This document shows, piece by piece, positions 508-53,661 of a stretch of 55,195 nt of DNA. The notes beneath the pieces are model-generated. The model was not told where the DNA came from. It worked only from the letters and a program-made list of their open reading frames with translations, and did not search any database. The stretch spans positions 1-55,195 of the forward strand of contig JAFEEH010000254.1 in the NCBI GenBank assembly GCA_018241185.1. Direction: 5' to 3'. The position numbers and the translations under genes were made by a program. How positions within the stretch are numbered: the first letter of the stretch is position 1; every line of letters starts with the position of its first letter. This stretch comes from Pseudomonadota bacterium (GTDB lineage: Bacteria; Pseudomonadota; Gammaproteobacteria; Burkholderiales; Burkholderiaceae_C).

Positions 508-572
508 TTGCTATCGAAAAGATAGCTGCTCGCGCCCGCCCCGCGGGCGCTGCAGGCCGATTCGGCTTGAAA
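508..572 (+). repeat. R1 dispersed repeat, copy A (best-preserved copy)
   Basis: This is the clearest copy of a 60-67 nt element. It has a first hairpin (GCTATC, loop GAAAA, GATAGC), a second hairpin (GCGCCCGC, loop CCC, GCGGGCGC), and a tail CTGCAGGCCGATTCGGCTTGA. It fills the space between two convergent genes and ends 1-2 nt before the ppc stop codon. Nine other recognisable copies occur in this window. Confidence 0.85.
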
Positions 573-573
573 T

Positions 574-3516
574 TCAGCCGGTGTTGCGCAGCCCCGCCGC
601 CACGCCATTGATCGACAGGTGGATGCCGCGCTGGACGCGCTCGCCGCCCTCGCCGGCGCGAAAGCGCCGCATCAGTTCCACCTGCAGGTGGTGCAGTGGA
701 TCGATGTAAGGAAAACGATGGCGCACCGAGCGCTGCATGTCGGCGTTGCCCTCCAGCCGCTGCTTGGCGCCGGTGATGAGCGTGAGCGCTTCGGAGGTGC
801 GGTGCCACTCGGCGTCGATCATGCCGAAGACCTTCTGGCGCAGCTTGCGGTCGGCCACCAGCTCGGCATAGCGTGTGGCCAGCTGCAGGTCGCTCTTGGC
901 GAGCACCATGTCCATGTTCGACAGCAGCGTGCGGAAGAAGGGCCACTGCGCGTACATGCGCTGCAGCAGGGCGATGCGGTCCTTGCGCTCGGTGGCCGAT
1001 GCCTTGCCGTCCGCACCGTCGAGGAAGCCCGCGACGGCGCTGCCGAAGCCGTACCAGCCGTTGAGCGTGAGACGGCACTGACCCCAGCTGAAGCTCCAGG
1101 GCACGGCGCGGAGGTCCTCGATGTTGCGCTTCGGGTTGCGCGAGGCCGGGCGCGAGCCGATGTTCAGCTCGGCGATCTCGCGGATCGGCGTGGAGCCGAA
1201 AAAGTAGTCGACGAAGCCGGGCGTCTCGTACACCAGTGCCCGGTACGCGGCCATGCTGGCGCGCGAGAGCGTCTCGGCAGTGGCGATGAAGGCGGCCGAC
1301 GCAGGTTTCGCCGGTGCGAGGAAGGTGGCCTCGAGCGTGGCGGCGACCAGCGTCTCGAGGTTGCGGCGGCCGATCTCGCGGTTGGCGTACTTGGATCCGA
1401 TGACTTCGCCCTGCTCCGTGAGGCGCAGCTGGCCGCGCACCGTGCCGGGCGGCTGCGCAAGGATGGCCTGGTAGCTCGGGCCGCCGCCGCGGCCGACAGT
1501 GCCGCCGCGTCCGTGGAACATCCGCAGTCGAATCTTGTCGTCACGGTTCGCGTTCATTTCGTCGAACAGCTTCACCAGGGCCATGCCCGCGCGGTAGAGC
1601 TCCCAGTTGCTGGTGAAGATGCCGCCGTCCTTGTTGCTGTCGCTGTAGCCCAGCATCACGTCCTGCTCGGCACCCGAGCGGCGCACCAGCGCGTCGATGC
1701 CGGGCAGGGCGTAGAAGGCCTTGACGATCGGCGCGGCGTTGCGCAGGTCCTCGATGGTTTCGAAGAGCGGGACGACGATCAGGTCGCACACCGCGTCGCC
1801 GGTGCCGGCGCCGGGCCGCCCCAAGCCGGCACGCGCCCCCTCGGGGGGCAGCGAGGACACGTCAGTGCCGAGCGTGGGGGCGTTGTTCAGCGTCCCGCGC
1901 ATCAGGCCGACCTCCTTCTGCAGCAGCAGCGCTTCCAGCAGGTCGCTCACCGTCTCGGTGTGGCTGATGATGTAGTGGCGGATGGCGGCGCGGCCGTAGC
2001 GCGCGTGGGCGGTGCGGGCCTGCGAGAAGATGGCCAGCTCGCTCACGGTGAGCGGCTGGTAGGCGCCGTCGGGCACGCGCAGCGGGCGGGCGTCGTCGAG
2101 CAGCCTGACCAGCAGCGTCTGTTTGGCGTCTTCGGGCAAGGCAGCGTAGTCGGGCTCGATGCGCGCGATCTTCAGCAGGTCCGCGACCACCGCCTCGTGC
2201 TTGTCGGAGCTCTGGCGCAGGTCGACGGTGGCGAGGTGGAAGCCGAACACCTCCACCGCGCGGATCAGGGGGCGCAGGCGTTGGTTGACCAGGGCGCCCC
2301 CGTGCTTCTCGCGCAGCGAATCCTCGATCGTGCGCAGATCGGCCAGGAAGGCCTCGGCACTGGGGTAGGGGTTCTGCGGCGCGACGGCATGGCGCGCCGC
2401 GACGCCGCCGGTCAGGTCCCGCAGGGTGGCGGCCAGCCGCGCGTACACGCCCGTCAGCGCGCGGCGGTAGGGCTCGTCGTGGCGGTGTTCGTTGGGGTCG
2501 GGCGAGGCCTCGGCCAGCGCCTGCATCTCGGGCGTGACGTCGACCAGCGCCGCCGACAGTGACAGCTCGCCGCCCAGGTAGTGGACTTCGGTGAGGTAGT
2601 GACGCAGCGCCAGCTCGCACTGGCGGCGCAGGGCGTAGTCGAGCGTGTCGGCCGTCACGTTCGGGTTGCCGTCGCGGTCGCCGCCGATCCACTGGCCCAT
2701 GCGGAAGAAGGAGGCGATGTCCTCGCGGCCGAGGGCCTTCTCCAGGTCGGCGTACACGCGCGGGATCTCGCGCAGGAAGGTGGCCTCGTAGTACGACAGC
2801 GCGTTCTCGATCTCGTCGGCCACGGTGAGCTTGGTGAAGCGCAGCAGGCGCGTCTGCCACAACTGCGTGACGCGGGTGCGGATCTGCTCTTCGTTGTCGG
2901 CCAGCTCGCGCGGGGTGAGGGCGTCCTTCTGGCCGGCGAACATCTTCTGCCGTGCGCGGATCTCGTAGCGCGCCGCGAGCAGGCCGGCGATGCCGCGCTC
3001 GGCGTCGAGGATGCTCTTGCGCTGCACCTCCGTCGGGTGCGCGGTGAGCACCGGCGACAGGTAGCTGTGCGCCAGCGAGGCGGCCACCTGGTCCGGACCC
3101 ACGCCGGCCTTGCGGATGCGCGCCAGCGCCACGTCGAGGCTGCCTTCGATGGCGTCGTCCGCGCGCTCGGCGTCGGTGCGGCGGCGGATCAGGTGGCGGT
3201 CTTCGGCCAGGTTGGCCAGGTGGCTGAAGTAGGTGAAGGCGCGGATCACGCGCACCGTCTCGGCGGCCGAGAGGCCCTTGAGCAGGTTCTTCAGCGCCCG
3301 GTCGGCCGAGTGGTCGGCGTCGCGCCGGAAGGCGACCGACAGGGTGCGGATCTTCTCGACCAGCTCGTAGCTGTCCTTGCCTTCCTGCTCGCGGATCACG
3401 TCGCCGAGGATGCGGCCCAGCAGTCGGATGTCCTCGATCAGCGGCTGGTCCTCCGCCTGCCGCTTGGGCTGAGCCGGGGCGCTGCTCTTGTTGTTGTTCT
3501 TGCGGGCGGTGGGCAT
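574..3516 (-). CDS. ppc: Phosphoenolpyruvate carboxylase
   Basis: This cytoplasmic anaplerotic enzyme converts phosphoenolpyruvate and bicarbonate to oxaloacetate. Visible landmarks are [12 protein letters not shown] near residue 157 (active-site His), [10 protein letters not shown] near 622, [13 protein letters not shown] near 670, and the invariant C-terminal NTG. The start is the ATG giving MPTARKNNN, which opens a short basic, asparagine-rich tail before the conserved region; the frame is open further upstream, but that part is antisense to hemC. The protein is 980 aa, long beside the E. coli enzyme of about 883. Part of the excess is a Pro/Gly/Arg-rich segment at about residues 546-569 that is encoded by repeat R2 (1809-1880), followed directly by [15 protein letters not shown]. 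The gene is divergent from hemC and convergent with the small gene at the left edge. Confidence 0.97.
1809..1880 (-). repeat. R2 dispersed repeat inside ppc, in frame
   Basis: Read on the minus strand, this 72-nt block begins CCCCCACGCTC, continues with TCGCTGCCCCCCGAGGG, and ends CTTGGGGCGGCCCGGCG. The same three blocks, in the same order and spacing, occur at 33128-33198 upstream of yceD. Seventy-two bases is 24 codons, so the insertion leaves the ppc frame intact and adds a segment containing [18 protein letters not shown]. Confidence 0.85.
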
Positions 3517-3580
3517 TCGACGTGGCTCCTTGAGGCTGAGGGGCGATGGGGAAAAGACCGGGCCGAGCAGCGTTGCTGCG

Positions 3581-4534: not shown

Positions 4535-4541
4535 GGCGGCC

Positions 4542-5348
4542 ATGAGCGGCACCCCGCGGCGGGTGATCGTGACCCGTCCGGCGCGCGAAGCGGCCCGGTG
4601 GGTCCAGGCCCTGAACGCCCACGGCATCGAGGCCGTGGCCCTGCCGCTGATCGAGATCGCGCCGCTGCTCCCCGGCATGCCCGCCGGCCCGCTCGATGCC
4701 CGGCCTTATGCGGCATTGATGTTCGTGAGCGCAGCGGCCGTCGACGGATTCTTTGAACGAAATCGGGCCGCAGCGCCCGCCGGACGGGCGCAGGCAGCTA
4801 TTGATTTAATAGCAAACGCGCGCTGCTGGGCCACCGGGCCCGGCACGGCGCAGGCGCTGGCGGACGCGGGCGTGCCGCCGGAGCGCATCGATGTGCCGCC
4901 CACCGAGGTGGGCCGTTTCGATTCCGAGGCGCTGTGGACGCAGGTGCAGGGGCAGTTGGCCGCTGGCGCACGCGTGCTGCGGGTGCGCGGCAGCGATGCG
5001 GCCGGGCGGCCGGCGGGGCGCGACTGGCTGGCCCGGACGCTCGAAGCGACGGGTGTGGCGGTCGACACGGCCGTCGTCTACCGGCGGCTCGCGCCGCGCG
5101 TGGACGACGCCGCACGCGCGCTGGTCGCTGCCAGCACGGTCGACGAACGGCATGTGTGGCTGTTCAGCAGCTCGGAAGCGATCGCCCATCTCATGGCCGC
5201 GATGCCCGGCACCGACTGGCGCGGCGCCCGCGCCTGGGCCACGCATCCGCGCATCGCCGATGCCGCGCGCACAGCCGGTTTCGGCTCGGTGTGCGAGGTG
5301 CCGGCGAGCCTGGACGCACTGGTCGCGTCGATAGAATCGATTCGATGA
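4542..5348 (+). CDS. hemD: Uroporphyrinogen-III synthase carrying an internal repeat
   Basis: The enzyme cyclises hydroxymethylbilane to uroporphyrinogen III, inverting ring D. The assignment rests on position after hemC, on size, and on family features: [19 protein letters not shown] at the N terminus, [20 protein letters not shown], the central [12 protein letters not shown], and a C-terminal [12 protein letters not shown] block. The product is 268 aa, about 22 longer than E. coli HemD. Residues 71-92 are encoded by an inverted copy of repeat R1 (4752-4817), which accounts for the extra length. The stop codon overlaps the hemX start (ATGA), so the two are probably translationally coupled. 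Confidence 0.9.
4752..4817 (-). repeat. R1 dispersed repeat, copy B, inside hemD in frame
   Basis: Reverse-complemented, this block shows the R1 head (TTTGCTATTAAATCAATAGC), the second hairpin (GCGCCCG, loop TCCGG, CGGGCGC) and the R1 tail (GCGGCCCGATTTCGTTCAAA). It is 66 nt long, equal to 22 codons, and begins exactly on a hemD codon boundary. It encodes a run rich in Ala and Arg followed by IDLIAN. Confidence 0.85.
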
Positions 5349-7993: not shown

Positions 7994-8002
7994 GCAGGTT
8001 CC

Positions 8003-8028: not shown

Positions 8029-8075
8029 GGCTGAAACGCCGCCATATCGCGGCGAATCGCACACCGGCCATACGA

Positions 8076-26305: not shown

Positions 26306-26880
26306 GGGAGTGCGTGTCCTTTTTGTTGTGTCTCGTCACTGGCCCGCAAGGGGCCCACGATGCACGGACGACGCAGCGAAACGACGGGAATTGCCGTTGC
26401 ACTCCGGAAGCTGGGACTGGCGAGGGGCGCGAGCGCCGCCACCGGTCCGGGGCAATCAGCCCTGCAGCCGCGGTGGTGGTGGCGCGAGGATGGGCGCGAG
26501 GCCGATGGGCTGCCGCGCTACTATCTTTTTGATAGCTGGCTGCGCAACAACGACGGGCGTTGCGGGCGATTCAATACCTGTATTCGCTGGGGTCAGCCAG
26601 CGCAGGCACATTTGAATCAGCCACATCAACACAAGGGCACTCGCTTCGATCCGCCGGCCAGCGCCTCGCGAAGGAGCGGGTGCGCTGGCTGGCTTGGGTA
26701 TTCCGTGGTCCCAATGACTTGGGGTTTCGTTTGCGTCGGCTTGACTGCCTTGCCTGGCTTGCCACTTTGCGCTGGAGCGCGGGGTCTGCAAGCCGTGCAA
26801 CGAAGTGGCATCGACCTCGCAGCGCCTTCGTGGGGTGCTCTAAACTTCTCGTCTAATCAAGCACTTACACGACCGCGCTG
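26306..26880. other. 575-bp divergent region between rne and rluC, probable long rne leader
   Basis: No convincing gene is seen. R1 copy C lies at 26517-26578. The rest is of mixed composition, with an AT-richer patch next to the rluC start (26842-26895) where promoters for both genes could be. E. coli rne has a long structured 5' leader through which RNase E cleaves its own message; the length here would allow the same, but the sequence gives no direct proof. Confidence 0.5.
26517..26578 (+). repeat. R1 dispersed repeat, copy C (degenerate)
   Basis: The head reads CTATCTTTTTGATAGCTGGC. The second hairpin is altered (GCGCAACAACGACGGGCGTTGC), still able to pair through GCAAC and GTTGC type arms, and the tail is reduced to GGGCGATTCAATA. 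Unlike most copies here it lies upstream of both neighbouring genes. Confidence 0.65.
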
Positions 26881-28618: not shown

Positions 28619-28631
28619 CTTTCCCTGCGCC

Positions 28632-29000: not shown

Positions 29001-29035
29001 CCCGGGCCCGCCCCGTTGCCGCGCCCCATTTCCCC

Positions 29036-30064: not shown

Positions 30065-30095
30065 GAGCAAGCGCGCGCGGCGCGGTCATCCCTGC

Positions 30096-30118
30096 AACGG
30101 CGCTTCGGCGCCGTTTTT
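30096..30118 (+). terminator. Intrinsic terminator after the S49 peptidase gene
   Basis: AACGGCGC, tetraloop TTCG, GCGCCGTT followed by TTT: a perfect 8-bp stem 31 nt after the stop codon. Confidence 0.9.
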
Positions 30119-30140
30119 CATGCGCGACGGCGATGCAGAA

Positions 30141-30204
30141 ATGCTCTCATTTCGATAGCTGTTCGCGCCCGCCTGGTGGGCGCCGCAGCACGATTTGGCT
30201 TGAA
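30141..30204 (+). repeat. R1 dispersed repeat, copy D
   Basis: The head is slightly decayed (ATGCTCTCATTTCGATAGCTG). The second hairpin is GCGCCCGCCTGGTGGGCGCC and the tail is CGATTTGGCTTGAAA. It lies between convergent genes, just beyond the MFS gene stop codon at 30213. Confidence 0.8.
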
Positions 30205-30212
30205 AGATCGGC

Positions 30213-31427: not shown

Positions 31428-31453
31428 GGCCGCCAGTCTGCCCGGCGCGTCAG

Positions 31454-31519
31454 ATTGCTATGAAATTAGTAGCTGCTTGCGCAGGCGGGACGGGCGCTGC
31501 AGGCCGATTTGGCCTGAAA
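31454..31519 (+). repeat. R1 dispersed repeat, copy E
   Basis: The head ATTGCTATGAAATTAGTAGC is followed by GCTTGCGCAGGCGGGACGGG and the canonical tail CTGCAGGCCGATTTGGCCTG. It lies between the start of the MFS gene and the end of the methyltransferase gene, in a 212-bp gap that otherwise shows no gene. Confidence 0.85.
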
Positions 31520-31639
31520 GTCGGCCGTCTGGACGCAGCGGTTGCGCAAGTCACGCAGCGACGCGGAAGCGCGCATTGTCGACGTCCCTTTTGCGCCTTT
31601 CGCGAAACCTTTTCGTCCTCTGCGTCCGGATGTCCGGAT

Positions 31640-32401: not shown

Positions 32402-32409
32402 GAGGTCCG

Positions 32410-32470
32410 TTGCTATCAATTCAGGAGCTTCCGGCGCCCGCTGCACGGGCGCCGGCGGCCGATTTCGTTC
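32410..32470 (+). repeat. R1 dispersed repeat, copy F
   Basis: The head TTGCTATCAATTCAGGAGC is followed by the hairpin GGCGCCCG, loop CTGCA, CGGGCGCC, and by a GGCCGATTTCGTTC tail. It ends 6 nt before the stop codon of the leftward Maf gene (32477-32479) and lies upstream of the methyltransferase start. Confidence 0.82.
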
Positions 32471-32476
32471 ACAAGG

Positions 32477-33058
32477 TCAGAGCAGGTCCACGCCGGCGGC
32501 GCGCAGCATCCGGCAGGTGCGGATCAGCGGCAGGCCGACCAGCGCGGTGGGGTCGTCGCTGTCGATCGCCTCGAGCAGCGCGATGCCCAGCCCTTCGCTC
32601 TTGGCGCTGCCGGCGCAGTCGTAGGGCTGCTCGGCCAGCAGGTAGCGCTCGATCGCCGCGTCGCTGAGGTCGCGGAACACCACGCGCACGGGCGCGATGT
32701 CCTGCTGCACAAAGCCGGAAGCGTGGCAGACCACGGCCACGGCCGTCTGGAAAATCAGCGTCTGGCCGCGCATGCGGCGCAGTTGTTCGGTGGCGCGGGC
32801 GTGGTCGCCGGGCTTGCCCAACGGCTCGCCGTGCAGGTCGGCCACCTGGTCGGAGCCGATGACCACGGCATCCGGAAAGCGGGCCGCCACAGCCTGCGCC
32901 TTGGCCAGCGCCAGGCGCACGGCCAGGTCGGCCGGTGTTTCGCCGGGCTGCGGGGTTTCGTCGACTTCGGGCGCCTGAATGTCGAAGGGCAGGTGCAGGC
33001 GCGACATCAGGTCGCGGCGATAGCGGGAGGTCGAACCGAGGATGACGGGGCGTTGCAT
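32477..33058 (-). CDS. Maf family nucleoside triphosphate pyrophosphatase (YceF-like)
   Basis: This 193-aa protein hydrolyses non-canonical or modified nucleoside triphosphates; the YceF branch acts on 7-methyl-GTP. Signatures are the N-terminal ILGSTSRYRRDLMSRL, VDETPQPGE, IGSDQVADLHGEPLGKPG and the C-terminal CAGSAKSEGLG. Location beside yceD-rpmF-plsX, on the opposite strand, is the usual YceF neighbourhood and supports that branch over YhdE. The start ATG lies 140 nt from the yceD start across a divergent region that contains repeat R2. Confidence 0.9.
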   Translation of the reverse strand: MQRPVILGSTSRYRRDLMSRLHLPFDIQAPEVDETPQPGETPADLAVRLALAKAQAVAARFPDAVVIGSDQVADLHGEPLGKPGDHARATEQLRRMRGQTLIFQTAVAVVCHASGFVQQDIAPVRVVFRDLSDAAIERYLLAEQPYDCAGSAKSEGLGIALLEAIDSDDPTALVGLPLIRTCRMLRAAGVDLL

Positions 33059-33127
33059 GCGGGCGATTGTCGGGGCCCATCGCTGTCCGCCGGTCCCCGC
33101 GTAGACTGCGGCCCGATGACATTCCTG

Positions 33128-33198
33128 CCCCCACGCTCCCCACTTCGTGTGGTCGCTGCCCCCCGAGGGCGCGCTCTTCCTCTTGGGGCGGCCCGGCG
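33128..33198 (+). repeat. R2 dispersed repeat directly before the yceD start codon
   Basis: Blocks CCCCCACGCTC, CACTTCGTGTGGTCGCTG, CCCCCCGAGGG and CTTGGGGCGGCCCGGCG follow one another over 71 nt and match the copy inside ppc (1809-1880). The final base lies directly before the yceD ATG, so the repeat forms the 5' untranslated region of yceD. Confidence 0.85.
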
Positions 33199-33753
33199 AT
33201 GAAGAAGGAATACGACGCCGGCCGCCTCGACGTGCCGGCCTTTGCCCAGGCGGGCGCCACGCTGTCGGCGGCCGAGCCGCTGTCGGCCTATCGGCGCCTG
33301 CTGGCCGAGTCGGCCGTGGCAGACGCCGCGGCCGAGGTCCGCTGGACGGCCGCAGGTGAAATGCGCACCGCCACGGGCGGACCGGCCGTGCCGTGGATCC
33401 ACCTGGACGCGACGGTGACGCTGCCGCTGGTCTGCCAGCGCTGCCTGCAGCCGGTGGACACGCCGCTGCAGGCCGACCGCTGGTTCCGCTTCGTGGCCGA
33501 CGAGGACACCGCGGCGCTGGAGGACGAAGAGGCCGAGGAGGACGTGCTGGTCAGCAGCCACGACTTCGACCTGCGCGAGCTGGTCGAGGACGAGTTGCTG
33601 ATGGACATCCCCTTCGCCCCCGTGCACGAGGTCTGCCCGGCGCCGGTGCCCATGTCCGCCGCCGATCCGGATTTCGATGCGGCCGGCCAGGAGCGCCCGA
33701 ACCCCTTCGCCGCGTTGGAAGTCCTGAAGAAGAAGCCCGCCGACGGGGCCTGA
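33199..33753 (+). CDS. yceD: YceD family protein (DUF177), 23S rRNA accumulation factor
   Basis: This 184-aa cytoplasmic protein belongs to the DUF177/YceD family, linked to 23S rRNA accumulation. The conserved CQRCLQPVDTPL motif (Cys-x-x-Cys) is near residue 78 and is followed by an acidic stretch and DLRELVEDELLMDIPFAPVH, all family hallmarks. It is encoded upstream of rpmF, as in most proteobacteria. No ribosome binding site is evident because repeat R2 occupies the bases before the ATG; the next in-frame starts upstream would translate the repeat. Confidence 0.92.
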   Translation: MKKEYDAGRLDVPAFAQAGATLSAAEPLSAYRRLLAESAVADAAAEVRWTAAGEMRTATGGPAVPWIHLDATVTLPLVCQRCLQPVDTPLQADRWFRFVADEDTAALEDEEAEEDVLVSSHDFDLRELVEDELLMDIPFAPVHEVCPAPVPMSAADPDFDAAGQERPNPFAALEVLKKKPADGA

Positions 33754-33786
33754 GGCAGGGGCTGGCGCGGTTCGCTCCCGGCGGGC

Positions 33787-33792
33787 TATAAT
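33787..33792 (+). promoter_or_regulatory. Candidate -10 element upstream of rpmF
   Basis: A perfect TATAAT lies in GC-rich sequence 34 nt after the yceD stop and 170 nt before rpmF. No good -35 hexamer stands 16-18 bp upstream. It could give rpmF, and perhaps the fatty acid genes, their own transcript with a leader of about 160 nt. Confidence 0.4.
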
Positions 33793-33961
33793 CGTGGGCT
33801 ACGCGCGCGCTTGCCGATCTGGTCGATGACCTGGATCGCCGACCGAGGGGCGGGATCCGATGGGTCCGCGCACCCGGCGGCAGTGGCAGGCGATGCCGGC
33901 TTCGGAAGCCCGGGCGCCGGCCGCACTGCCCACTCACCTCACCGTCTATTCAGGAGCCATC

Positions 33962-34144
33962 ATGGCCGTTCAGCAAAACAAGAAGTCGCCTTCGAAGCGC
34001 GGCATGCACCGCTCGCACAACGCCCTGGGCGTGCCCGGCATCGCCGTCGAGCCCACCACCGGCGAAACGCACCTGCGCCACCACATCAGCCCCAACGGTT
34101 TCTACCGTGGCCGCAAGGTGCTGAAGACCAAGTCCGAAGCCTGA
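33962..34144 (+). CDS. rpmF: 50S ribosomal protein L32
   Basis: This is a 60-aa basic ribosomal protein, starting [20 protein letters not shown] and ending in a Lys-rich tail. The family's usual C-terminal zinc cysteines are absent; [17 protein letters not shown] is the typical cysteine-free proteobacterial form. The AGGAG ribosome binding site lies at 33952-33956. It is positioned between yceD and plsX, and a terminator or attenuator hairpin follows 17 nt after its stop. Confidence 0.97.
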
Positions 34145-34161
34145 GTTGCTCTTTCAAGGCC

Positions 34162-34204
34162 AAGGCCCGAAGCTACTGAATCCGTAGCGTCGGGCCTTTG
34201 TTTT
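34162..34204 (+). terminator. Terminator or attenuator between rpmF and plsX
   Basis: AAGGCCCGA (34162-34170) and TCGGGCCTT (34190-34198) form a 9-bp stem enclosing a second stem, GCTAC (34172-34176) and GTAGC (34184-34188). TGTTTT follows. The inner hairpin looks like the head of repeat R1. The plsX ATG begins at 34206, directly after the T-run. Confidence 0.8.
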
Positions 34205-34205
34205 G

Positions 34206-35306
34206 ATGCCGTCGACTTCCTCTTTTTCGAGCGCCACCCCGCTGTCGGCCATCACCGTGGCCGTGGACTGCATGGGTGGCGACCATGGCCCCCGCGTCAC
34301 GCTCGCGGCCTGCCGTGCCTTCCTTGAGCGCCACGCCGACGCGTCGCTGCTGCTCGTCGGCGCGCCTGCGGCGCTGGCGTCCTTCAGCCATCCGCGTGGG
34401 CGGGTCATTCCGGCCACCGAGGTGGTCGGCATGGACGATCCGATCGAGGTCGCCCTGCGCAAGAAGAAGGATTCGTCCATGCGCGTGGCGATCCAGCAGG
34501 TCAAGGACGGCGCTGCGCATGCCGCTGTGTCGGCTGGCAACACGGGCGCCCTGATGGCGATCGCCCGCTACCTGCTCAAGACGCTGGACGGCATCGATCG
34601 TCCGGCCATCGCTCCCCAGTTGCCCAACGGCAAGGGTGGCGCCACGACGGTGTTGGATCTCGGCGCGAACGTGGATTGCGACGCCGAAGACCTGCTGCAG
34701 TTCGCCGTGCTGGGTTCGGCGCTGGTGTCGGCCCTGACGGGCAACGAATCGCCCAGCGTGGGTCTGCTCAACGTCGGTGAAGAGGCCATCAAGGGCAGCG
34801 AAACGATCAAGAAGGCGAGCCAACTGCTGCAAAAAGCGGCCAACTCGCAGGATCTGAACTTCTACGGCAACGTCGAGGGCAACGACATCTTCAAGGGCAC
34901 CACCGACATCGTGGTGTGCGACGGCTTCGTCGGGAATGTGGCGCTGAAGGCCACCGAGGGCGTCGCCTCGATGATCGTGGACTTCATGCGCCAAGAATTT
35001 TCGCGCGGCGTCTTCAGCAAGATGGCGGCGATCGTCGCTTATCCGGTTCTAAAAGCGCTCAAAGGACGGCTTGACCACCGTCGCTACAACGGCGCGGCGC
35101 TCCTCGGTCTGCGTGGTCTGGTCTTCAAGAGCCACGGTTCGGCCGATGAGGAGGCATTCGGGCACGCGTTGGATCGCGCTTATGATGCCGCTCGCAACAA
35201 CCTGCTCGACCGAGTGCGTGCCCGCATCGCCCATGCCGCACCGCTCTTGGCCCGTACCGACGCTCCTGCAGCGACGGCCGAAGCCCCGGTCGTGATCCAC
35301 GCCTGA
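34206..35306 (+). CDS. plsX: Phosphate acyltransferase PlsX
   Basis: The enzyme converts acyl-ACP to acyl-phosphate for phospholipid synthesis at the inner face of the membrane. Signatures are [16 protein letters not shown] at the N terminus, [12 protein letters not shown] near residue 105, NVGEEAIKG near 197 and [17 protein letters not shown] near 240. It is 366 aa from the ATG at 34206. There is no ribosome binding site because the rpmF hairpin occupies the upstream bases. The stop overlaps the fabH start (TGATG). Confidence 0.96.
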
Positions 35307-36283
35307 TGACCCTTTATTCCCGCATCACCGGCACGGGCAGCTACCTGCCACCGCGCCGGGTGACGAACGATGATCTGGCCCGCGAACTGGCCGGCCGCGG
35401 CATCGAGACCTCCGACCAGTGGATCATCGAGCGCACCGGCATCCGGGCGCGCCATTTCGCCGAACCCGAGGTGACCAGCAGCGACCTCGCGCTGCATGCC
35501 TGCCGCCACGCGCTCGAAGCGTCCGGCCGCAGCGCGCAGGACGTGGACCTGATCATCGTCGCGACCTCGACACCCGACATGGTGTTCCCTTCGTCGGCAG
35601 CGATTCTTCAGAACAAGCTCGGCGTCGCCGGCTGCCCGGCCTTCGACGTGCAGGCGGTGTGCAGCGGCTTCGTCTATGCGCTCACGGTGGCCGACGCGAT
35701 GATCCGCACTGGCGGCGCCAAGTGCGCGCTGGTCGTCGGTGCCGAGGTCTTCTCGCGCATCCTCGATTTCAATGACCGCACGACCTGTGTGCTCTTCGGC
35801 GACGGCGCCGGGGCCGTGGTGCTCGAGGCAAGCGACACGCCCGGCATTTTGGCCAGCGACCTCCATGCCGACGGTTCACACGTCGGGATCCTGTGCGTGC
35901 CGGGGAACGTCTCGGGCGGCCAGGTGCTCGGCACGCCGCTGCTGCACATGGACGGCCAGGCCGTCTTCAAGCTCGCGGTGCGCGTGCTCGAGGATGCCGC
36001 CCGCGCCACGCTGGCCAAGGCCGGCAAGGTCGATGCCGACATCGACTGGCTCATCCCCCACCAGGCCAACATCCGCATCATGCAGGGCACGGCCAAGAAG
36101 CTGAAGCTGCCGCTGGACAAGCTGATCGTCACCGTCGACGAGCATGGCAACACCTCCGCGGCGTCCATTCCCCTGGCGCTCGACGCTGCCGTGCGCGGCG
36201 GCAAGGTCAAGAAGGGCGACACACTCATGCTCGAAGGCGTGGGCGGCGGCTTCACCTGGGGCGCGGTGCTATTGAATCTGTAG
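35306..36283 (+). CDS. fabH: 3-oxoacyl-ACP synthase III
   Basis: The enzyme condenses acetyl-CoA with malonyl-ACP to start fatty acid synthesis. The catalytic triad is visible: Cys near residue 118 (VCSGFVYAL), His near 252 (PHQANIRI) and Asn near 282 (HGNTSAAS). It is 325 aa. The last codons, after [10 protein letters not shown], and the TAG stop are within the head of repeat R1 copy G, so the exact C terminus has been set by the repeat. fabD follows 51 nt later, after the repeat. Confidence 0.97.
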
Positions 36284-36331
36284 CGGCTGGCGCCCGCTGG
36301 ACGGGCGCTGCGGCTCGATTGGAGACATAAA
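36267..36331 (+). repeat. R1 dispersed repeat, copy G, overlapping the end of fabH
   Basis: The head TGCTATTGAATCTGTAGC contains the fabH stop codon TAG. Then come GGCGCCCG, loop CTGGA, CGGGCGCTGCGGC and the tail TCGATTGGAGACATAAAA, which reaches to within 3 nt of the fabD ATG. The tail also supplies the bases where the fabD ribosome binding site must lie (GGAG). Confidence 0.85.
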
Positions 36332-36334
36332 ACG

Positions 36335-37285
36335 ATGAAGACCTTCGCATTCGTCTTTCCTGGGCAGGGTTCGCAGGCCGTGGGCATGCTGGACGCCTGG
36401 GGTGACCATCCCGCCGTGCGCGACACCCTGGCCGAGGCCTCCGAAGCGCTGGGCGAGGACGTGGCGAAGCTGATCCACGAAGGCCCCAAGGAAGCGCTGG
36501 CACTCACCACCAACACCCAGCCCGTGATGCTGGTGGCGGGTGTGGCCGCCTGGCGCGCCTGGCTGGCCGAGGGCGGCGCGCAGCCGGCCGTCGTGGCGGG
36601 CCATTCGCTGGGCGAGTATTCGGCCCTGGTCGCTGCTGGCGTGCTGACGCTCTCGCAGGCCGCGCCGCTGGTGCGCTTCCGCGCGCAGGCCATGCAGGAG
36701 GCCGTGCCGGTCGGCGTCGGTGCCATGGCCGCCATCCTCGGCATGGAATCCGCCAAGGTCATTGCCGGCTGCGCCGAGGTGTCGGCCGGCTTCCCGGCGG
36801 GCAGCGGCGAAGTGGTCGAAGCCGTGAATTTCAACGACCCGGTGCAGACGGTGATCGCCGGCAGCAAGGCGGCGGTCGAGAAGGCCTGTGAGGTGCTCAA
36901 GGCGAACGGCGCCAAGCGCGCGTTGCCGCTGCCGGTGTCGGCGCCTTTCCACTCGAGCCTCATGCGGCCGGCCGCCGAAGCGCTCAAGGGCCGGTTGGCG
37001 GACGTGGAACTGAAGGCGCCCGTCATTCCGGTGCTGAACAACATCGACGTCGCGGTCGAGAGCGACCCGGCGCGCATCCGCGACGCCCTCGTGCGCCAGG
37101 CGGCCGGCCCGGTGCGTTGGGTCGAGAGCGTGCAGGCCCTGCAGGCGCGCGGCGTTCAGGCCATCGTCGAATGCGGGCCGGGCAAGGTCCTGTCCGGCAT
37201 GGTCAAGCGCATCGCGCCCGAAGTGGGCAACGGCGCCATCTACGACCCGGCCTCGCTGGCCGACGCCAAGCAACTGCTGGCCTGA
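36335..37285 (+). CDS. fabD: Malonyl-CoA:ACP transacylase
   Basis: The enzyme moves malonyl groups from CoA to ACP. FVFPGQGSQAVGML opens the protein; the nucleophile Ser lies in GHSLGEYSAL near residue 91, the substrate Arg in RAQAMQ, and the His in PVSAPFHSSLM near 207. It is 316 aa, the usual length. GGAG within the R1 repeat, 10 nt upstream of the ATG, is the probable ribosome binding site. Confidence 0.97.
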   Translation: MKTFAFVFPGQGSQAVGMLDAWGDHPAVRDTLAEASEALGEDVAKLIHEGPKEALALTTNTQPVMLVAGVAAWRAWLAEGGAQPAVVAGHSLGEYSALVAAGVLTLSQAAPLVRFRAQAMQEAVPVGVGAMAAILGMESAKVIAGCAEVSAGFPAGSGEVVEAVNFNDPVQTVIAGSKAAVEKACEVLKANGAKRALPLPVSAPFHSSLMRPAAEALKGRLADVELKAPVIPVLNNIDVAVESDPARIRDALVRQAAGPVRWVESVQALQARGVQAIVECGPGKVLSGMVKRIAPEVGNGAIYDPASLADAKQLLA

Positions 37286-37313
37286 GAAGCGCCGCATCCA
37301 CCTTCCTTCTGTC

Positions 37314-38397
<1,084 letters not shown>

Positions 38398-38518
38398 TTC
38401 AGGCCCTCCCGGAAGCCGAGCCCGTGCACCGGGGCCGGCGCCGATGGCGCTGCTGCCGCCCGCCTGACAGTGCGATGCGGCGTCGCTTCCTTCCCTTTTC
38501 CCAGAAAGGCTCGCCGGC

Positions 38519-39763
38519 ATGACCCTACGCCGCGTCGTCGTGACCGGGCTCGGTTGCGTTTCTCCCGTCGGCAACACCGTCGCCGACAGCTGGGCCGGCC
38601 TGATCGCAGGCAGGTCCGGGATCGACACCATCACCAAGTTCGATGTCAGCGCCTTCGCCTGCAAGTTCGCCGGCCAGGTCAAGGACTTCGACATCACGAA
38701 GTACATCTCCGAGAAGGAAGCGCGTCACATGGACCGCTTCATTCACCTGGGGATGGCCGCGTCGATCCAGGCGGTCGAGGACAGCGGGCTGCCGACCGGC
38801 GATGCGCTCACGCCGGAACTGGCCTCGCGCATCGGCTGCAACATCGGCTCGGGCATCGGCGGCCTGCCGCTGATCGAGGACACGCATGGCGAACTGGTGA
38901 ACCGCGGCCCGCGCCGCATCTCGCCCTTCTTCGTGCCGGCCTCGATCATCAACATGATCTCGGGCCACGTGTCGATCAAGTACGGCTTCACGGGCGCGAA
39001 CATCGCCGTCGTGACGGCGTGCACGACGGGTCTGCACGCCATCGGCCTGTCGGCCCGGCTGATCCAGGCGGGCGATGCCGACGTGATGGTGGCCGGCGGC
39101 GCCGAATCGACCGTCTCGCCGTTGGGCATCGGCGGCTTTGCGGCGGCCCGTGCCCTCAGCACCCGCAACGACGATCCGGCGACGGCCTCGCGTCCGTGGG
39201 ACAAGGACCGTGACGGCTTCGTGCTGGGTGAGGGCGCCGGCGTGCTGGTAATCGAGGAGTACGAGCATGCCAAGGCGCGGGGCGCCAAGATCTATGCGGA
39301 ACTGGTCGGTTTCGGCATGAGCGCCGACGCGTACCACATGACTGCGCCCAACGTCGACGGCCCGCGCCGCTCGATGGAGGCCGCCCTGCGCAATGCCGGC
39401 ATCAATGCCGACGAGGTGGACTACCTCAATGCGCACGGCACTTCGACGCCGCTGGGCGACCTCAACGAGACGAACGCGATCAAGAACGCCTTCGGCAGCC
39501 ACGCGAAGAAGCTTGTCGTGAACTCGACCAAGTCGATGACCGGCCACCTGCTGGGAGGCGCTGGCGGCATCGAGTCGGTGTTCACGGTGCTGGCCGTGCA
39601 CCACCAGAAGAGTCCGCCGACCATCAACATCTTCAACCAGGACCCGGAATGCGACCTGGACTACTGCGCCAACGAGGCGCGGGACATGAAGATCGACGTG
39701 GCCGTAAAGAACAACTTCGGGTTCGGCGGCACCAACGGCACCCTGGTGTTCAAGCGCGTCTGA
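38519..39763 (+). CDS. fabF: 3-oxoacyl-ACP synthase II
   Basis: This condensing enzyme elongates acyl-ACP chains and adjusts unsaturated fatty acid length. The Cys-His-His triad is visible: [10 protein letters not shown] (Cys near residue 168), [11 protein letters not shown] (His near 306) and [13 protein letters not shown] (His near 343). [13 protein letters not shown] opens the protein and NNFGFGGTN closes it. It is 414 aa, the usual length, and ends the fatty acid cluster. Confidence 0.97.
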
Positions 39764-39785
39764 CCCGCCGGAACACCTCGCCCGC

Positions 39786-40277
39786 ATGCACAGCGCCCCA
39801 TCGGTGAGCTATCCGGTGGGGCGCTCGCGCGTCGGCCACGCCATTCTCTGGGTCATTTGGGCCGCTGGCGCTTGCTGCGCCTGCGCGTGGCGCTACCAAA
39901 ACGATAGCAATGGAGCGCGCTGGGCGGTGGTGCTGGGCGCCTTCGTCGTGGCCTCGCTCGCGCTGACGTGGGCGTTGAGGCCCCAGTCAGCGCGGGTGCT
40001 GCGGTGGGACGGGGCCTTCTGGTCCCTCTCGGGCGCGCGGCCCATGGGCATGGCCGAAGCGGCGGTGGCGCTCGACCTGCAGTGCACGCTGTTGTTGCGC
40101 CTGCAGGAAGCCGGCCGCGCCACGCAATGGCTCTGGGCCGACCGCTCCGCGGCGCCCGAGCGCTGGAACGCGATGCGCCGTGCGGTATATTGCCGCGCCC
40201 CGAGTCCGCAAGACGCGGGGCTTCCAAATGCCGCCGCCGCTGCGCCGGCCGCCCGCATTCCCGACTTCCCCGCATGA
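39786..40277 (+). CDS. Small membrane protein of unknown function upstream of rpoE
   Basis: This 163-aa protein has two probable membrane helices: near residues 17-36 (VGHAILWVIWAAGACCACAW) and 46-63 (WAVVLGAFVVASLALTWAL). A soluble part follows with LRWDGAFWSLSG and LLLRLQEAGRATQWLWADR, a small beta-rich pattern I have seen in proteins encoded before rpoE in Burkholderiales. An inverted R1 repeat (39861-39911) encodes part of the first helix and the loop after it. The stop overlaps the rpoE start (ATGA), so the two are likely co-translated. Function is unknown. Confidence 0.75.
   Translation: MHSAPSVSYPVGRSRVGHAILWVIWAAGACCACAWRYQNDSNGARWAVVLGAFVVASLALTWALRPQSARVLRWDGAFWSLSGARPMGMAEAAVALDLQCTLLLRLQEAGRATQWLWADRSAAPERWNAMRRAVYCRAPSPQDAGLPNAAAAAPAARIPDFPA
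39861..39911 (-). repeat. R1 dispersed repeat, copy H, inside the small membrane protein gene (degenerate)
   Basis: Reverse-complemented, it reads ATTGCTATCGTTTTGGTAGC, then GCGCAGGCGCAGCAAGCGCC, matching the R1 head and a diverged second hairpin; the tail is not clear. It encodes residues between about 26 and 42. Confidence 0.65.
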
Positions 40278-40951
40278 CCTCGTCCGCGCCGCCCCCGCCG
40301 CCTTCGGGCGAGCTGCCCGACGCGGCAGCCGCCGCGCCGGCGCGGCCGGTCGATCCCGATTTCCAGCTCGTCCAACGCACGGTGGCGGGCGACAACAAGG
40401 CCTTCGAGCTGTTGGTCCTGAAATACCAGCGCCGGATCGAGCGGCTGATCGGCCGCATGGTGCGCGACGTCGACCTGGTCGAGGACATCGCGCAGGAGAC
40501 CTTCATCCGTGCCTACCGCGCCCTGCACCAATTCCGGGGCGAGGCGCAGTTCTACACCTGGCTGTACCGGATCGCCGTCAACACCGCCAAGAAGGCACTG
40601 GTGGACATGAAGCGCGACCCCACCATCCCGGAGGCGGCGCTGCGCGGTGCCAGCGACGACGACGATGAAACTTACCGCCCGGGAAACGAACCAATCAGCG
40701 ACGAAACCCCCGATTCCGTGCTGGCTGCCAACGAGATTGCGGCGGCGGTGAACGCTGCCATGGAGGCGCTGCCGGCCGAACTGCGCCAGGCCGTGACGCT
40801 GCGCGAGATCGAGGGCTTGAGCTACGAAGAGATTGCCGAGGTCATGAACTGCCCCATCGGGACGGTGCGTTCGCGCATCTTCCGGGCGCGGGAGGCCATC
40901 TCGGCGCGGGTGAAGCCGCTGCTGGACAACCAGTCCGGCAAGCGCTGGTGA
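40274..40951 (+). CDS. rpoE: RNA polymerase sigma-E factor (RpoE/AlgU)
   Basis: This ECF sigma factor directs the envelope stress response. Region 2 shows FELLVLKYQRRIERLIGRMV, DLVEDIAQETFIRAYRAL and FYTWLYRIAVNTAKK; region 4 shows LPAELRQAVTLREIEGLSYE and CPIGTVRSRIFRARE. It is 225 aa with a Pro/Ala-rich N-terminal tail of about 28 residues before the conserved part. The following genes are its anti-sigma factor and regulators, the standard order rpoE-rseA-rseB-mucD. Confidence 0.96.
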   Translation: MTSSAPPPPPSGELPDAAAAAPARPVDPDFQLVQRTVAGDNKAFELLVLKYQRRIERLIGRMVRDVDLVEDIAQETFIRAYRALHQFRGEAQFYTWLYRIAVNTAKKALVDMKRDPTIPEAALRGASDDDDETYRPGNEPISDETPDSVLAANEIAAAVNAAMEALPAELRQAVTLREIEGLSYEEIAEVMNCPIGTVRSRIFRAREAISARVKPLLDNQSGKRW

Positions 40952-46707: not shown

Positions 46708-46744
46708 GCGGCGGCCTGGCCCGCCAGAAGAAGAATCCCCAGCG

Positions 46745-47716: not shown

Positions 47717-47749
47717 CCCGTTGACCAGGGAAGAGGAAGAGAAGAGGGT

Positions 47750-48106: not shown

Positions 48107-48135
48107 GCCCGACCAGCCGCCAGCGCCCCGCCGAC

Positions 48136-48822: not shown

Positions 48823-48830
48823 AGACATTC

Positions 48831-49862
48831 ATGACCACCGATCCCAATGCTATCGATTCCGTAGCGCCTCCCGCAGGCGCCACGGGCGTTTCGACCCCAA
48901 ATGGCTTGCAAATCCCGGGTGCGGGCGGTGCCCGGCGCTGCGGCTTGGTCGCCATCGTCGGCAAGCCCAACGTGGGCAAATCCACGCTGCTCAACGCACT
49001 GGTGGGTCAGAAGATCAGCATCACCTCGCGCAAGGCGCAGACCACGCGCCATCGCATCACGGGCATCCGCACCGTGGCGACGCCGGACGGCGGCGGCGCC
49101 CAGTTCGTCTTCGTCGACACGCCGGGCTTCCAGACCCGCCATGCGAATGCCCTCAACCGCTCGCTCAACAAGACCGTGCTGGGCGCGGTGGCCGACGTCG
49201 ACCTGATCCTGTTCGTGGTCGAGGCGGGGCGCTTCGCGCCGGCCGACGCCAAGGTGCTGTCGCTGCTGGGCAAGAACATCCCGGTGCTGCTGATCGCCAA
49301 CAAGCTCGACACCGTGCATCGCCGGGCCGACATCGCGCCCTGGCTGGCCCGGATGCAGGCCGAATACGCCGGTGAGGGTGCCGAGCGCTTCGCCGAGTTC
49401 GTGCCGATGTCGGCCAAGAACGCCAAGGACATCGAGCGGCTCATCGGCATCTGCGAGAAGTACCTGCCCGAGCAGCCGTGGTGGTACGACGAAGACGAAC
49501 TGACCGATCGCAGCGAGAAGTTCCTTGCCAGCGAGACGGTGCGCGAGAAGCTGTTCCGGCTCACGGGGGACGAGCTGCCCTACACCTCGACCGTGGTCAT
49601 CGACCGGTTTGAGGAAGAGCCGCCGCAGAAGAAGGGCCAGAAGCGCCTGGTCAAGATCGCCGCCACCATCGTGGTCGAGCGCGACGGCCACAAGGCGATG
49701 GTGATCGGCGACAAGGGCGAGCGCATCAAGCGCATCGGCACCGAAACGCGCCAGGAGCTCGAAAAACTCATGGATGCCAAGGTGTTCATCGAGCTGTGGG
49801 TCAAGGTGCGCTCCGGCTGGGCCGACGACGAGGCCCGGGTCAAGTCCTTCGGCTATGAGTGA
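48831..49862 (+). CDS. era: GTPase Era with a repeat-derived N-terminal extension
   Basis: Era is an essential GTPase in 30S subunit assembly that binds the 3' end of 16S rRNA. GTPase motifs are GKPNVGKS at residues 44-51, DTPGF near 96 and NKLD near 157; the C-terminal KH domain includes [20 protein letters not shown]. It is 343 aa against about 301 in E. coli. The extra N-terminal residues (about 6-28) are encoded by repeat R1 copy I. The ATG at 48831 stands 8 nt after the rnc stop; a later start that avoids the repeat is not obvious, since no ATG or GTG lies between the repeat and the G domain. Confidence 0.93.
48847..48913 (+). repeat. R1 dispersed repeat, copy I, inside the 5' end of era
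   Basis: The head ATGCTATCGATTCCGTAGC is followed by GCGCCTCCCGCAGGCGC, then CACGGGCGTTTCGACC and a tail AAATGGCTTGCAAAT. The pairing of the second hairpin is GCGCCT with AGGCGC. It is translated in frame as part of era. Confidence 0.8.
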
Positions 49863-50520: not shown

Positions 50521-50521
50521 C

Positions 50522-51292: not shown

Positions 51293-51353
51293 GCCCCGCC
51301 GATGCCCGGCCTCGCGCGGCGCGTCCTGCCTCCGGGCGCATGAAAGTCTTGCC

Positions 51354-52130: not shown

Positions 52131-52141
52131 GGGCACGCGCC

Positions 52142-52540: not shown

Positions 52541-52541
52541 G

Positions 52542-53615
52542 ATGGCCGATTCCCTTCACCGCCCCCTCGTCATCGACGTCGCGGGCACCACGCTCACGGC
52601 CGACGACCGCCGGCGCCTCGCGCATCCGCAGGTCGGCGGTGTCATCCACTTCGCGCGCAACTGGGAAAGCCGCGCGCAGATGACGGCGCTCAACGCCGAG
52701 ATCAAGTCGATCAATCCGCAGGTGCTGATCTGCGTCGACCACGAGGGCGGCCGCGTACAGCGTTTTCGCACAGACGGTTTCACGCGCCTGCCTTCAATGC
52801 GATCGTTGGGCGAGTGCTGGATGCGCGATCCGATGGAGGCCATCCAAGTGGCTACCGCGGCTGGCTACGTGCTCGCCAGCGAACTGCGCGCCGTCGGCGT
52901 CGACTTCAGCTTCGCGCCCGTGCTCGACCTCGACCACGGCGAGAGCAGCGTCATCGGTGACCGCAGCTTCCATCGCGACCCGCGTGTCGTGACGTTGCTG
53001 GCCAAGAGCGCGATGCATGGCATGCTGCAGGCCGGCATGCCGAACTGCGGCAAGCATTTTCCGGGGCATGGCTTCGTCAAGGCCGATTCGCACACGGCGA
53101 TCCCGGTCGACCGCCGCAGCCTCAAGGCCATCCTGGCGGACGATGCGAAGCCCTTCGAGTGGCTGGCCGAGACGCTGGGAGCTGTGATGCCGGCGCATGT
53201 GATCTATTCGCGCGTCGATGCCCGGCCCGCTGGCTTCTCGGCCAAGTGGTTGCAGGAGATCCTGCGCGGTCGACTGCGCTTCGAGGGCGCGATCTTCAGC
53301 GACGACCTGAGCATGGAAGCCGGCCGGTACATCGACGGCCGGCTGTTGAGCTACACCGATGCCGCTTTGGCGGCGCTGGCGGCCGGCTGCGACCTGGCGA
53401 TGCTGTGCAACCAGAGCATCGGCATGGGCGAGCCGCTGGACGCGCTTCTCGACGGCTTCTGGGCTGCGGCCACCGCGGGCCGCTGGCAGCCGGTGGCCGC
53501 GAGCGAGGCGCGGCGGCAGGCCCTGATGCCGGCGTGCCCGGCGGCGCCTGGCTGGGTGGCCATGCAGGCATCGGCAGCCTACACAGCCGCGCTCCGTCTG
53601 CTGCAAAAAATATAG
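52542..53615 (+). CDS. nagZ: Beta-N-acetylhexosaminidase NagZ
   Basis: This cytoplasmic GH3 enzyme removes GlcNAc from anhydro-muropeptides in peptidoglycan recycling, which in some bacteria affects AmpC induction. VDHEGGRVQRFR near residue 65, the His-containing CGKHFPGHGFVKADSH near 172 and the nucleophile region FSDDLSMEA near 253 are present. It is 357 aa. The last codons (LQKI) and the TAG stop lie in repeat R1 copy J. It is convergent with lysS, 41 nt away. Confidence 0.95.
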   Translation: MADSLHRPLVIDVAGTTLTADDRRRLAHPQVGGVIHFARNWESRAQMTALNAEIKSINPQVLICVDHEGGRVQRFRTDGFTRLPSMRSLGECWMRDPMEAIQVATAAGYVLASELRAVGVDFSFAPVLDLDHGESSVIGDRSFHRDPRVVTLLAKSAMHGMLQAGMPNCGKHFPGHGFVKADSHTAIPVDRRSLKAILADDAKPFEWLAETLGAVMPAHVIYSRVDARPAGFSAKWLQEILRGRLRFEGAIFSDDLSMEAGRYIDGRLLSYTDAALAALAAGCDLAMLCNQSIGMGEPLDALLDGFWAAATAGRWQPVAASEARRQALMPACPAAPGWVAMQASAAYTAALRLLQKI

Positions 53616-53661
53616 CGGCTTGCGCAGGCGCCGCGGGCATTACAGGGCTTTTTGATTCAAG
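53601..53661 (+). repeat. R1 dispersed repeat, copy J, joining the ends of nagZ and lysS
   Basis: The head is decayed (GCAAAAAATATAGCGGC), followed by TTGCGCAGGCGCCGCGGGC and a tail that reads TACAGGGCTTTTTGATTCAAG. It contains the nagZ stop TAG (53613-53615) and overlaps the lysS stop (TGA on the minus strand, 53657-53659). Confidence 0.7.

What the first reader, a model, noticed from the sequence alone, without database searches (positions are those of the whole stretch)
508..53661. Family R1: a double-hairpin repeat with ten copies in 55 kb
The element is 60-67 nt: a head GCTAT-N5/7-ATAGC or GTAGC, a GC hairpin around GCGCCCGC, and a tail near CTGCAGGCCGATTTGGCTTGAA. Copies lie at 508, 4752 (inverted), 26517, 30141, 31454, 32410, 36267, 39861 (inverted), 48847 and 53601. 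About one per 5.5 kb is very dense. Most are at gene 3' ends or convergent junctions. Similar short repeats occur widely in Comamonadaceae genomes to my knowledge, but how they spread and what they do is not something I know to be settled. The size and hairpins suggest a non-autonomous element moved by an outside enzyme, like REP/RAYT pairs.
Basis: partly seen in the sequence, partly recalled or inferred. Interest (0 to 1): 0.72.

Follow-up and report, generated by a model that had tools for sequence, protein, structure and literature searches.

The report
Old REP-like repeat in Comamonadaceae chromosomes
A 66-letter hairpin repeat sits at several hundred places, mostly between genes, in this bacterium and in many of its relatives; it behaves like an old, now stationary cousin of the known REP repeats, and its front end resembles the end of a transposase gene of a class for which no REP repeat had been found.

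Summary
All ten places match a covariance model, though 26517 (conserved rne leader) and 39861 (coding, weak) are doubtful copies. The element is 66 nt with sharp ends. At 51 places in a 400-kb sample the genome would hold roughly 680 copies. Relatives of it occur in 72 of 200 genomes of the GTDB family, named ones being Acidovorax, Ottowia and Simplicispira; blastn of one copy finds none in plasmids or phages. Copies lie mostly between genes, more often at convergent than divergent junctions, without strand preference. No target duplication was found. Between two species about 93% identical nothing was cleanly gained or lost. It looks like a REP-like element that spread in the past and is now stationary. 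The best candidate mover is the single gltB-linked Y1 transposase (subclass 2.1, 'TIRYT'), for which no REP is known: the R1 head recurs in its 3' terminal repeat, and motif and R1 co-occur across genera. Against this: 8 of 53 R1-bearing genomes have a catalytically dead copy, and whole R1 copies are not enriched beside the gene. The link is a lead, not shown.

The parts
507..574 (+). R1 copy between convergent genes (161-448 + and 574-3516 -)
   Evidence: 81.8 bits, E 1.5e-26; gene calls by own codon model
4749..4816 (-). R1 copy, in frame inside a hemD-like gene; stretch of the same length in G010, G008, G013
   Evidence: 74.9 bits; alignment
26517..26578 (+). R1-like match in the rne (RNase E) leader; doubtful member, perhaps exapted
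   Evidence: 50.3 bits but in the training set; 470-nt stretch 97-98% identical in four clade species, head missing in G005 and G012
30140..30207 (+). R1 copy between convergent genes; R1-length sequence in 6 clade genomes (decayed in G008), none in the 8 of 9 R1-lacking relatives whose flanks were placed
   Evidence: 72.7 bits
31454..31521 (+). R1 copy between tandem genes; missing in G010, G014, G008; followed by a second repeat as a 196-nt unit
   Evidence: 82.6 bits
32409..32476 (+). R1 copy between tandem genes; R1-length sequence in 6 clade genomes (decayed in G008), no R1 in the other 9 of the genus
   Evidence: 72.3 bits
36265..36332 (+). R1 copy at the fabH/fabD junction; its head encodes the end of FabH (AVLLNL stop)
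   Evidence: 72.4 bits
39844..39911 (-). weak R1-like match in coding sequence; doubtful
   Evidence: 35.8 bits, not in the training set
48846..48913 (+). R1 copy in frame in the N-terminal tail of era
   Evidence: 63.7 bits
53597..53660 (+). R1 copy at a convergent junction; its TAG is the stop codon of the gene 52542-53615
   Evidence: 54.8 bits

Best explanation
R1 is a REP-like, non-autonomous interspersed element of Comamonadaceae chromosomes. Shown: a 66-nt unit with fixed ends, a nearly invariant CTA...TAGC head, a covarying GC hairpin and a GGCCGATTTGGCTTGAAA-like tail; hundreds of chromosomal copies; mostly intergenic, no strand preference; stationary between two sister species; conserved columns change less than free columns. 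Inferred: it was spread in ancestors of R1-bearing clades as a single-stranded hairpin substrate, with RTAG at the foot of the hairpin as guide and the complementary CTAT ahead of it as the cleavage site, in the way of IS200/IS605-type Y1 enzymes. Inferred and weaker: the enzyme was the gltB-linked TnpA_Y1 of subclass 2.1, whose 3' terminal repeat (TTGCTATCAAATTTGATGTGTCCCC in the clearest cases) starts with the R1 head. Today the copies sit still and the family motif is kept by selection or by exchange among copies.
For: Genome-wide family with sharp ends and a covarying hairpin; patchy in the genus, in 57 of 141 sampled genera of the family. R1 in 6 clade species and not in the 9 others at 32410, nor in 8 of 9 at 30141 (one unplaced). 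12 copies for 41 convergent, 35 for 321 tandem, 2 for 41 divergent junctions; 7 of 57 inside predicted genes, 1 at an edge; tandem orientation 17 same, 18 opposite. R1-head motif at the fixed place in the transposase 3' repeat in 34 of 53 genomes with >=7 R1 hits against 6 of 33 with none (Fisher 4.6e-5; best of 5 registers, Mann-Whitney 6e-8). On the transposase tree, correlated change is preferred (LR 13.4, 4 df, p 0.0095, 88 genomes). R1 match next to the transposase stop in G000, G010, G013, G002 and G145. Conserved columns of shared intergenic copies differ at 62 of 448, free columns at 118 of 397 (Fisher 2e-8), 4-fold sites at 0.176.
Against: Catalytic His/Tyr lost in 8 of 53 R1-bearing and 5 of 42 R1-lacking genomes, no association (Fisher 0.77). 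R1 copies are as alike in two dead-enzyme genomes (0.75, 0.75) as in three live ones (0.74, 0.70, 0.78). PF01797 rings in none of G120, G220, G046, G066, G188 (22 or more R1 hits each) and G156 (4 hits); G120, G220 and G046 do have a diverged homologue, so PF01797 misses some. Whole R1 matches lie next to the gene in 7 of 60 loci, and outside the own genus in 3 of the 29 from genomes with >=7 hits, where junction occupancy in this genome (about 12%) would give about 7. 15 of 52 R1-bearing genomes lack the motif and 7 of 36 with fewer than 7 hits have it; G034 (none found) has it too. The motif test was re-registered by one base after a first negative run (p 0.86), so its p values are post hoc. 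No target duplication, no observed movement. The tag is mostly ATAG, not the GTAG of REPs.
Confidence: 0.45

Rival explanations
1. REP-like element spread by a different enzyme, now lost or unlinked; the likeness between the R1 head and the end of the gltB-linked transposase repeat is old R1 debris or chance.
For: Dead or unrecognised Y1 enzymes in R1-rich genomes; whole copies not enriched at the gene; in some genomes the motif is the edge of an inverted R1 copy.
Against: In several genera (for example G124, G150, G096, G211, G157) the motif stands without the rest of R1, at a constant place before TGTCCC; correlated change on the tree. No other candidate enzyme was searched for, so this rival is little tested.
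Confidence: 0.33
2. A host-maintained chromosomal site (protein binding site or RNA structure at gene ends) that spreads mainly by conversion among copies and is no longer a transposon.
For: Same places kept in G010 and G013 (21 of 22) while free columns change faster (0.297) than 4-fold sites (0.176) and conserved columns slower (0.138, p 0.04 against 4-fold); 4 of 16 sites compatible with full replacement of the copy; element differs more than its flanks (median 0.212 against 0.107, p 0.0012).
Against: At 12 of 16 sites the orthologous copy is still the nearest one, and element and flank divergence go together (Spearman 0.54). Seven of 15 species of the genus have none; no strand preference; no terminator-like site at the six copies in 26000-40500. 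It does not explain how hundreds of sites arose.
Confidence: 0.15
3. A currently active mobile element.
For: 31454 is polymorphic inside the clade and gained or lost with a second repeat; 53597 has no hit in G010.
Against: No near-identical copies (highest pairwise identity 0.80-0.89 among ten good copies in each of five genomes); no clean gain or loss between G010 and G013.
Confidence: 0.05

Closest known systems
GTAG-tagged REP elements and their RAYT/TnpA_REP (passages of PMC3733652 and PMC2817692; PMC6006769 sections 12 and 15 part 1)
   Same: Short hairpin, hundreds of intergenic copies, tetranucleotide ending in TAG at the foot of the hairpin, a Y1 transposase gene in the chromosome
   Different: Tag mostly ATAG; 66 nt with an upstream complementary CTAT and a fixed tail; single, not paired, in the window; not regularly flanking the transposase gene
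TIRYT / TnpA_Y1 subclass 2.1 with GGGGWSAS terminal repeats, and the dispersed TIR repeats of some TIRYT genomes (passages of PMC3733652; PMC6006769 section 15 part 1)
   Same: The gltB-linked gene fits by motif (NHFH, YIDLNP), length (231 aa) and GGGGTCAG/GGGGACAC flanks; R1 shares its head with the 3' repeat; PMC3733652 already suggests that TIRYTs may form repeat families from their TIRs
   Different: The R1 consensus holds no GGGGWSAS; PMC6006769 reports no REP for subclass 2.1; PMC3733652 has no mention of Comamonas, Acidovorax, Delftia, Variovorax, Burkholderia or Polaromonas in its text
BRE, Betaproteobacterial repeat element (PMC3110155, section 14 read)
   Same: Short repeat in Bordetella and Comamonadaceae
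   Different: About 90 bp, 69% GC in Bordetella, at most 29 copies per genome, partly in tandem; its sequence is only in a figure and could not be compared
MITEs (recalled)
   Same: Short non-autonomous unit with sharp ends
   Different: No target duplication; by eye the ends are not inverted repeats of each other

Membership tests
GTAG REP | GTAG/GTGG directly at the 5' foot of a hairpin | tested here: not met
   First base A in 79% of 35 copies: RTAG, not GTAG
GTAG REP | Hairpin kept by compensating changes | tested here: met
   60 two-sided cells against 26.5 +- 7.6 in shuffles, 56 copies from three genera; number of pairs with such a change not above shuffles
GTAG REP | High copy, mostly intergenic, chromosomal | tested here: met
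   no blastn match in plasmids or phages
GTAG REP | Copies flank the cognate transposase gene | tested here: inconclusive
   7 of 60 loci, four of them one clade; head motif alone in 34 of 53 R1-bearing genomes
REPIN/BIME | Two elements in inverted orientation at short distance | tested here: not met
   Singletons in the window; smallest spacing 955 nt
MITE | Target site duplication | tested here: not met
   85 copies, lengths 2-6, 8 and 9, observed within the permuted range
TnpA_Y1 subclass 2.1 / TIRYT (the gene, not R1) | HUH and Y motifs, about 238 aa, GGGGWSAS-type flanks | tested here: met
   PF01797 43.8 bits; sequence and flanks by eye; definitions from PMC6006769 and PMC3733652
TnpA_Y1 subclass 2.1 / TIRYT (the gene, not R1) | C-terminal HTH-like domain; place in the published subclass tree | not tested
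   No profile of the subclass was at hand
Intrinsic terminator | GC stem followed by a T run | tested here: not met
   None of 9 terminator-like sites in 26000-40500 coincides with the six copies there
Rfam family | Match to a curated model | tested here: not met
   0 at gathering score in the window; one good copy gives only a 13-bit isrG match against a cut-off of 100
BRE | Sequence identity | not testable with these tools
   Sequence only in a figure

The most novel reading that the evidence does not exclude
R1 is the missing cognate repeat of TnpA_Y1 subclass 2.1 (TIRYT): the R1 head is the transferred part of the transposase's own 3' terminal repeat, and the gltB-linked gene, after spreading R1, has repeatedly lost its catalysis while being kept as a full-length protein, perhaps as a binding protein for its paired repeats (48-49 nt apart) just ahead of gltB.
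Probability: 0.3. Interest if true: 0.72.

Novelty: new variant of a known kind. Interest (0 to 1): 0.5.

Why it matters
Subclass 2.1 is called the second largest subclass of these enzymes and is described as having no REP nearby (PMC6006769, section 15 part 1). A repeat family with hundreds of copies whose head matches the enzyme's terminal repeat gives that group a testable substrate. The stationary copies with fast free columns and slow fixed columns also give a setting to ask whether REP-like repeats are kept by selection or by conversion.

Tried and rejected
Whole-copy adjacency to the transposase as proof of linkage: rejected; 7 of 60 loci, and 3 of 29 outside the own genus where about 7 would be expected from junction occupancy (my estimate). 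First motif test in the wrong register: negative (p 0.86); redone one base over after seeing that the loop is one base longer, plus a best-of-five-registers version. Link between dead catalysis and loss of R1: rejected. Target duplications: none (length 7 not tried). Decay by neutral drift alone: does not give the column pattern, though the six places below threshold in one species (1 of 22 and 5 of 25) are left out and bias it somewhat. A simple gene caller trained on all long ORFs picked antisense frames and was retrained. Full-consensus pattern in genome contigs: 0 matches. Literature: eight searches, of which the other papers were seen only as listings; read were passages of PMC3733652 and PMC2817692, passages, abstract, section 12 and part 1 of section 15 of PMC6006769, and passages and section 14 of PMC3110155. 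No description of R1 was seen there, but most subscription papers are not held. That similar repeats are common in Comamonadaceae was also my own recollection. R1 counts are capped at 25 per genome and strictly filtered, so 'none' can hide weak variants; of 16 such genomes searched again with looser settings 12 stayed at none and 4 gave 1-2 hits at E <= 0.001. Of the 100 loci nine gave no anchor and two more were dropped; G034 (none found, 65% complete) shows the motif but was lost because its locus is cut short, and G045 was left out of the tree because its gene start was misplaced. The cut-offs for the tree test (R1 >= 7, PWM > 4) were chosen after seeing the data.
Full report
Observation. 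The ten reported places were read on both strands and aligned. A covariance model built from nine of them finds all ten in the window at E <= 4e-10; apart from the same places on the other strand, the next has E 0.06. In the own genome (5.34 Mb, 269 contigs; the window is contig C171) the scan returned 150 hits, its limit, 144 of them outside the window, all at E <= 1e-14. A sample of 400 kb from seven long contigs holds 51 distinct places at E <= 1e-6, one per 7.8 kb, which extrapolates to roughly 680 copies.

Anatomy. Thirty-six copies were laid out with flanks and the 35 of full length used for column statistics. Information starts at column 1-3 and stops at column 66; flanks carry almost none. 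The majority sequence is GTTGCTATCGAATCGATAGCTGCTCGCGCCCGCTGGACGGGCGCTGCAGGCCGATTTGGCTTGAAA, close to it in the free columns. Copies from two other genera (G017, G016) keep the plan but change the central stem. On 56 copies the structure shows 60 two-sided cells against 26.5 +- 7.6 in shuffles, nearly all in the central hairpin; the number of pairs with such a change (7) is not above the shuffles (6.0), and lineage effects contribute. The head GCTAT/ATAGC hardly varies, so pairing there is not demonstrated. Rfam has nothing.

Distribution. None of 12 genomes from other families of the order has a match at E <= 1e-8. One exact pattern in named genomes hits 18 stretches: 13 Acidovorax, 2 Ottowia, 1 Simplicispira and 2 unplaced MAGs. 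Blastn of one copy finds nothing in 72,556 plasmids or 50,697 phages.

Context. With a codon-usage gene caller of my own 57 copies in 455 kb, that is 48 of the 51 sampled places plus nine window copies without 26517, fall as 12 at convergent, 35 at tandem and 2 at divergent junctions, 7 inside predicted genes and 1 at an edge; the same stretch has 41, 321 and 41 such junctions. In tandem gaps 17 copies point with the genes and 18 against. Several window copies are built into genes: the head of 36265 encodes the end of FabH with the same residues as in the R1-lacking relative G012, 4749 lies in frame in a hemD-like gene and 48846 in the N-terminal tail of Era (gene names recalled from sequence motifs). 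In four of 57 copies the upstream gene ends 19 nt into the match, so that the TAG of R1 is its stop codon (seen in the sequence for two).

Movement. At 32410 the six R1-bearing species have R1 or its remains and the nine others do not; 30141 agrees for the eight of nine whose flanks were placed. These are not clean empty sites: 32-83 nt of other DNA, 40 of them flank, lie between the anchors at 32410 in the R1-lacking species. 31454 differs inside the clade, as part of a 196-nt unit with a second repeat. G013 has a match at all ten window places, some weak, and G010 at eight. In 200 kb of G010 and 192 kb of G013 there are 24 and 27 hits at E <= 1e-5. Of 22 G010 copies with both flanks placed, 21 have an R1 hit at the same place in G013; of 25 such G013 copies, 20 in G010; of the six others five have a sequence of full length below threshold and one is about 20 nt shorter. 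So no clean gain or loss in that sample. Eighty-five copies show no target duplication. Ten good copies from each of five genomes are only 70-78% alike on average: no burst is recent.

Change in place. In the shared intergenic copies conserved columns differ at 62 of 448 positions, free columns at 118 of 397, 4-fold sites at 0.176 and other intergenic DNA at 0.130; in copies inside genes the difference is weaker (9 of 105, 14 of 93). Elements differ more than their flanks (median 0.212 against 0.107, 21 sites, p 0.0012), but the flanks include coding sequence and the two go together (Spearman 0.54). At four of 16 sites the data allow complete replacement of the copy; at 12 of 16 the orthologous copy is still the nearest. 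Selection on the motif, exchange among copies, or raised mutation in the hairpin could each produce this; I could not separate them.

Candidate enzyme. The own genome has one PF01797 (Y1_Tnp) match, a 231-aa protein with NHFH and YIDLNP, upstream of gltB (gltB named from its N-terminal sequence, recalled). In all 15 species of the genus there is one homologue, followed by the same gene start. A homologue at E <= 1e-30 is present in 183 of 200 family genomes, two copies in five of them. By motifs, length and GGGGTCAG/GGGGACAC flanks it fits TnpA_Y1 subclass 2.1 or TIRYT; PMC6006769 (section 12 and part 1 of section 15 read) reports no REP near subclass 2.1, while PMC3733652 (passages) reports moderately abundant dispersed TIR repeats for some TIRYTs. 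Downstream of the gene many R1-bearing genera carry a motif of the kind TTGCTATCAAATTTGATGTGTCCCCAATTA and, usually 48-49 nt on, TAATTGGAATCTGACCCCAATTA. The first 17 nt are the R1 head with one extra loop base.

Test of the link. Of 100 loci, nine gave no anchor and two were dropped; 53 genomes with at least 7 R1 hits, 33 with none and 3 between remained. GCT stands at the fixed place in 34 of 53 and 6 of 33 (Fisher 4.6e-5), and the best of five registers differs at p 6e-8. The first run, one base off, gave p 0.86, so these are post hoc. On a midpoint-rooted tree of 88 transposases a dependent model of R1 and motif beats the independent one (37 both, 29 neither, 15 R1 only, 7 motif only; LR 13.4, p 0.0095); cut-offs were chosen after seeing the data.

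Against the link. Whole R1 matches near the gene occur in 7 of 60 loci, four of them one clade. Eight of 53 R1-bearing genomes have lost HUH or Tyr residues, as have 5 of 42 without R1. Six of 12 genomes asked gave no PF01797 match, five of them with 22 or more R1 hits; three of these five have a diverged homologue, and the two others are MAGs 70-74% complete. A live enzyme is thus not needed to keep R1. It may have been needed to spread it; that remains inference.

Verdict.

Noticed in passing
window 26505-26590 (rne leader): The R1-like match at 26517 sits in a 470-nt stretch upstream of rne that is 97-98% identical between the window and four R1-bearing species: either an R1 copy taken into the RNase E leader or an unrelated conserved leader structure.
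   Followed up: partly
window 31444-31639: R1 at 31454 is followed by a second repeat; the 196-nt unit has other copies (G002:C23, G013:C12) and is missing in G010, G014 and G008.
   Followed up: partly
window 1798-1884 and 33078-33197: Another repeat (inverted pair 1809-1861 / 33146-33198, CCCTCGGGGGGCAGCG-like) coincides with breaks in the alignment to several relatives; could be BRE-like.
   Followed up: no
L040-L054, L103-L129, L186-L204, L232-L271 (gltB-linked Y1 gene): Catalytic residues are lost in 14 of 98 homologues that stay full length; dN/dS of two dead same-genus pairs is 0.52 and 0.32, of three live pairs 0.14-0.41.
   Followed up: partly
3' flank of the Y1 gene, e.g. L040: Two GGGG[AT]CA[CG]-type repeats usually 48-49 nt apart lie just ahead of a promoter-like sequence of gltB in many of the printed loci.
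   Followed up: no
G013:C44 about 179560-193840 (L340-L341): About 14 kb present in G013 and missing in G010 between otherwise syntenic blocks.
   Followed up: no
L131:8686-8747, L131:19237-19294, L142:3539-3598, L141:3096-3158: Weak R1 hits on both strands with higher GC: perhaps another palindromic repeat.
   Followed up: no
G161 loci L295-L304: Three contig lengths of G161 equal those of Acidovorax sp. MR-S7, an R1-rich genome whose Y1 gene has lost catalytic residues.
   Followed up: no
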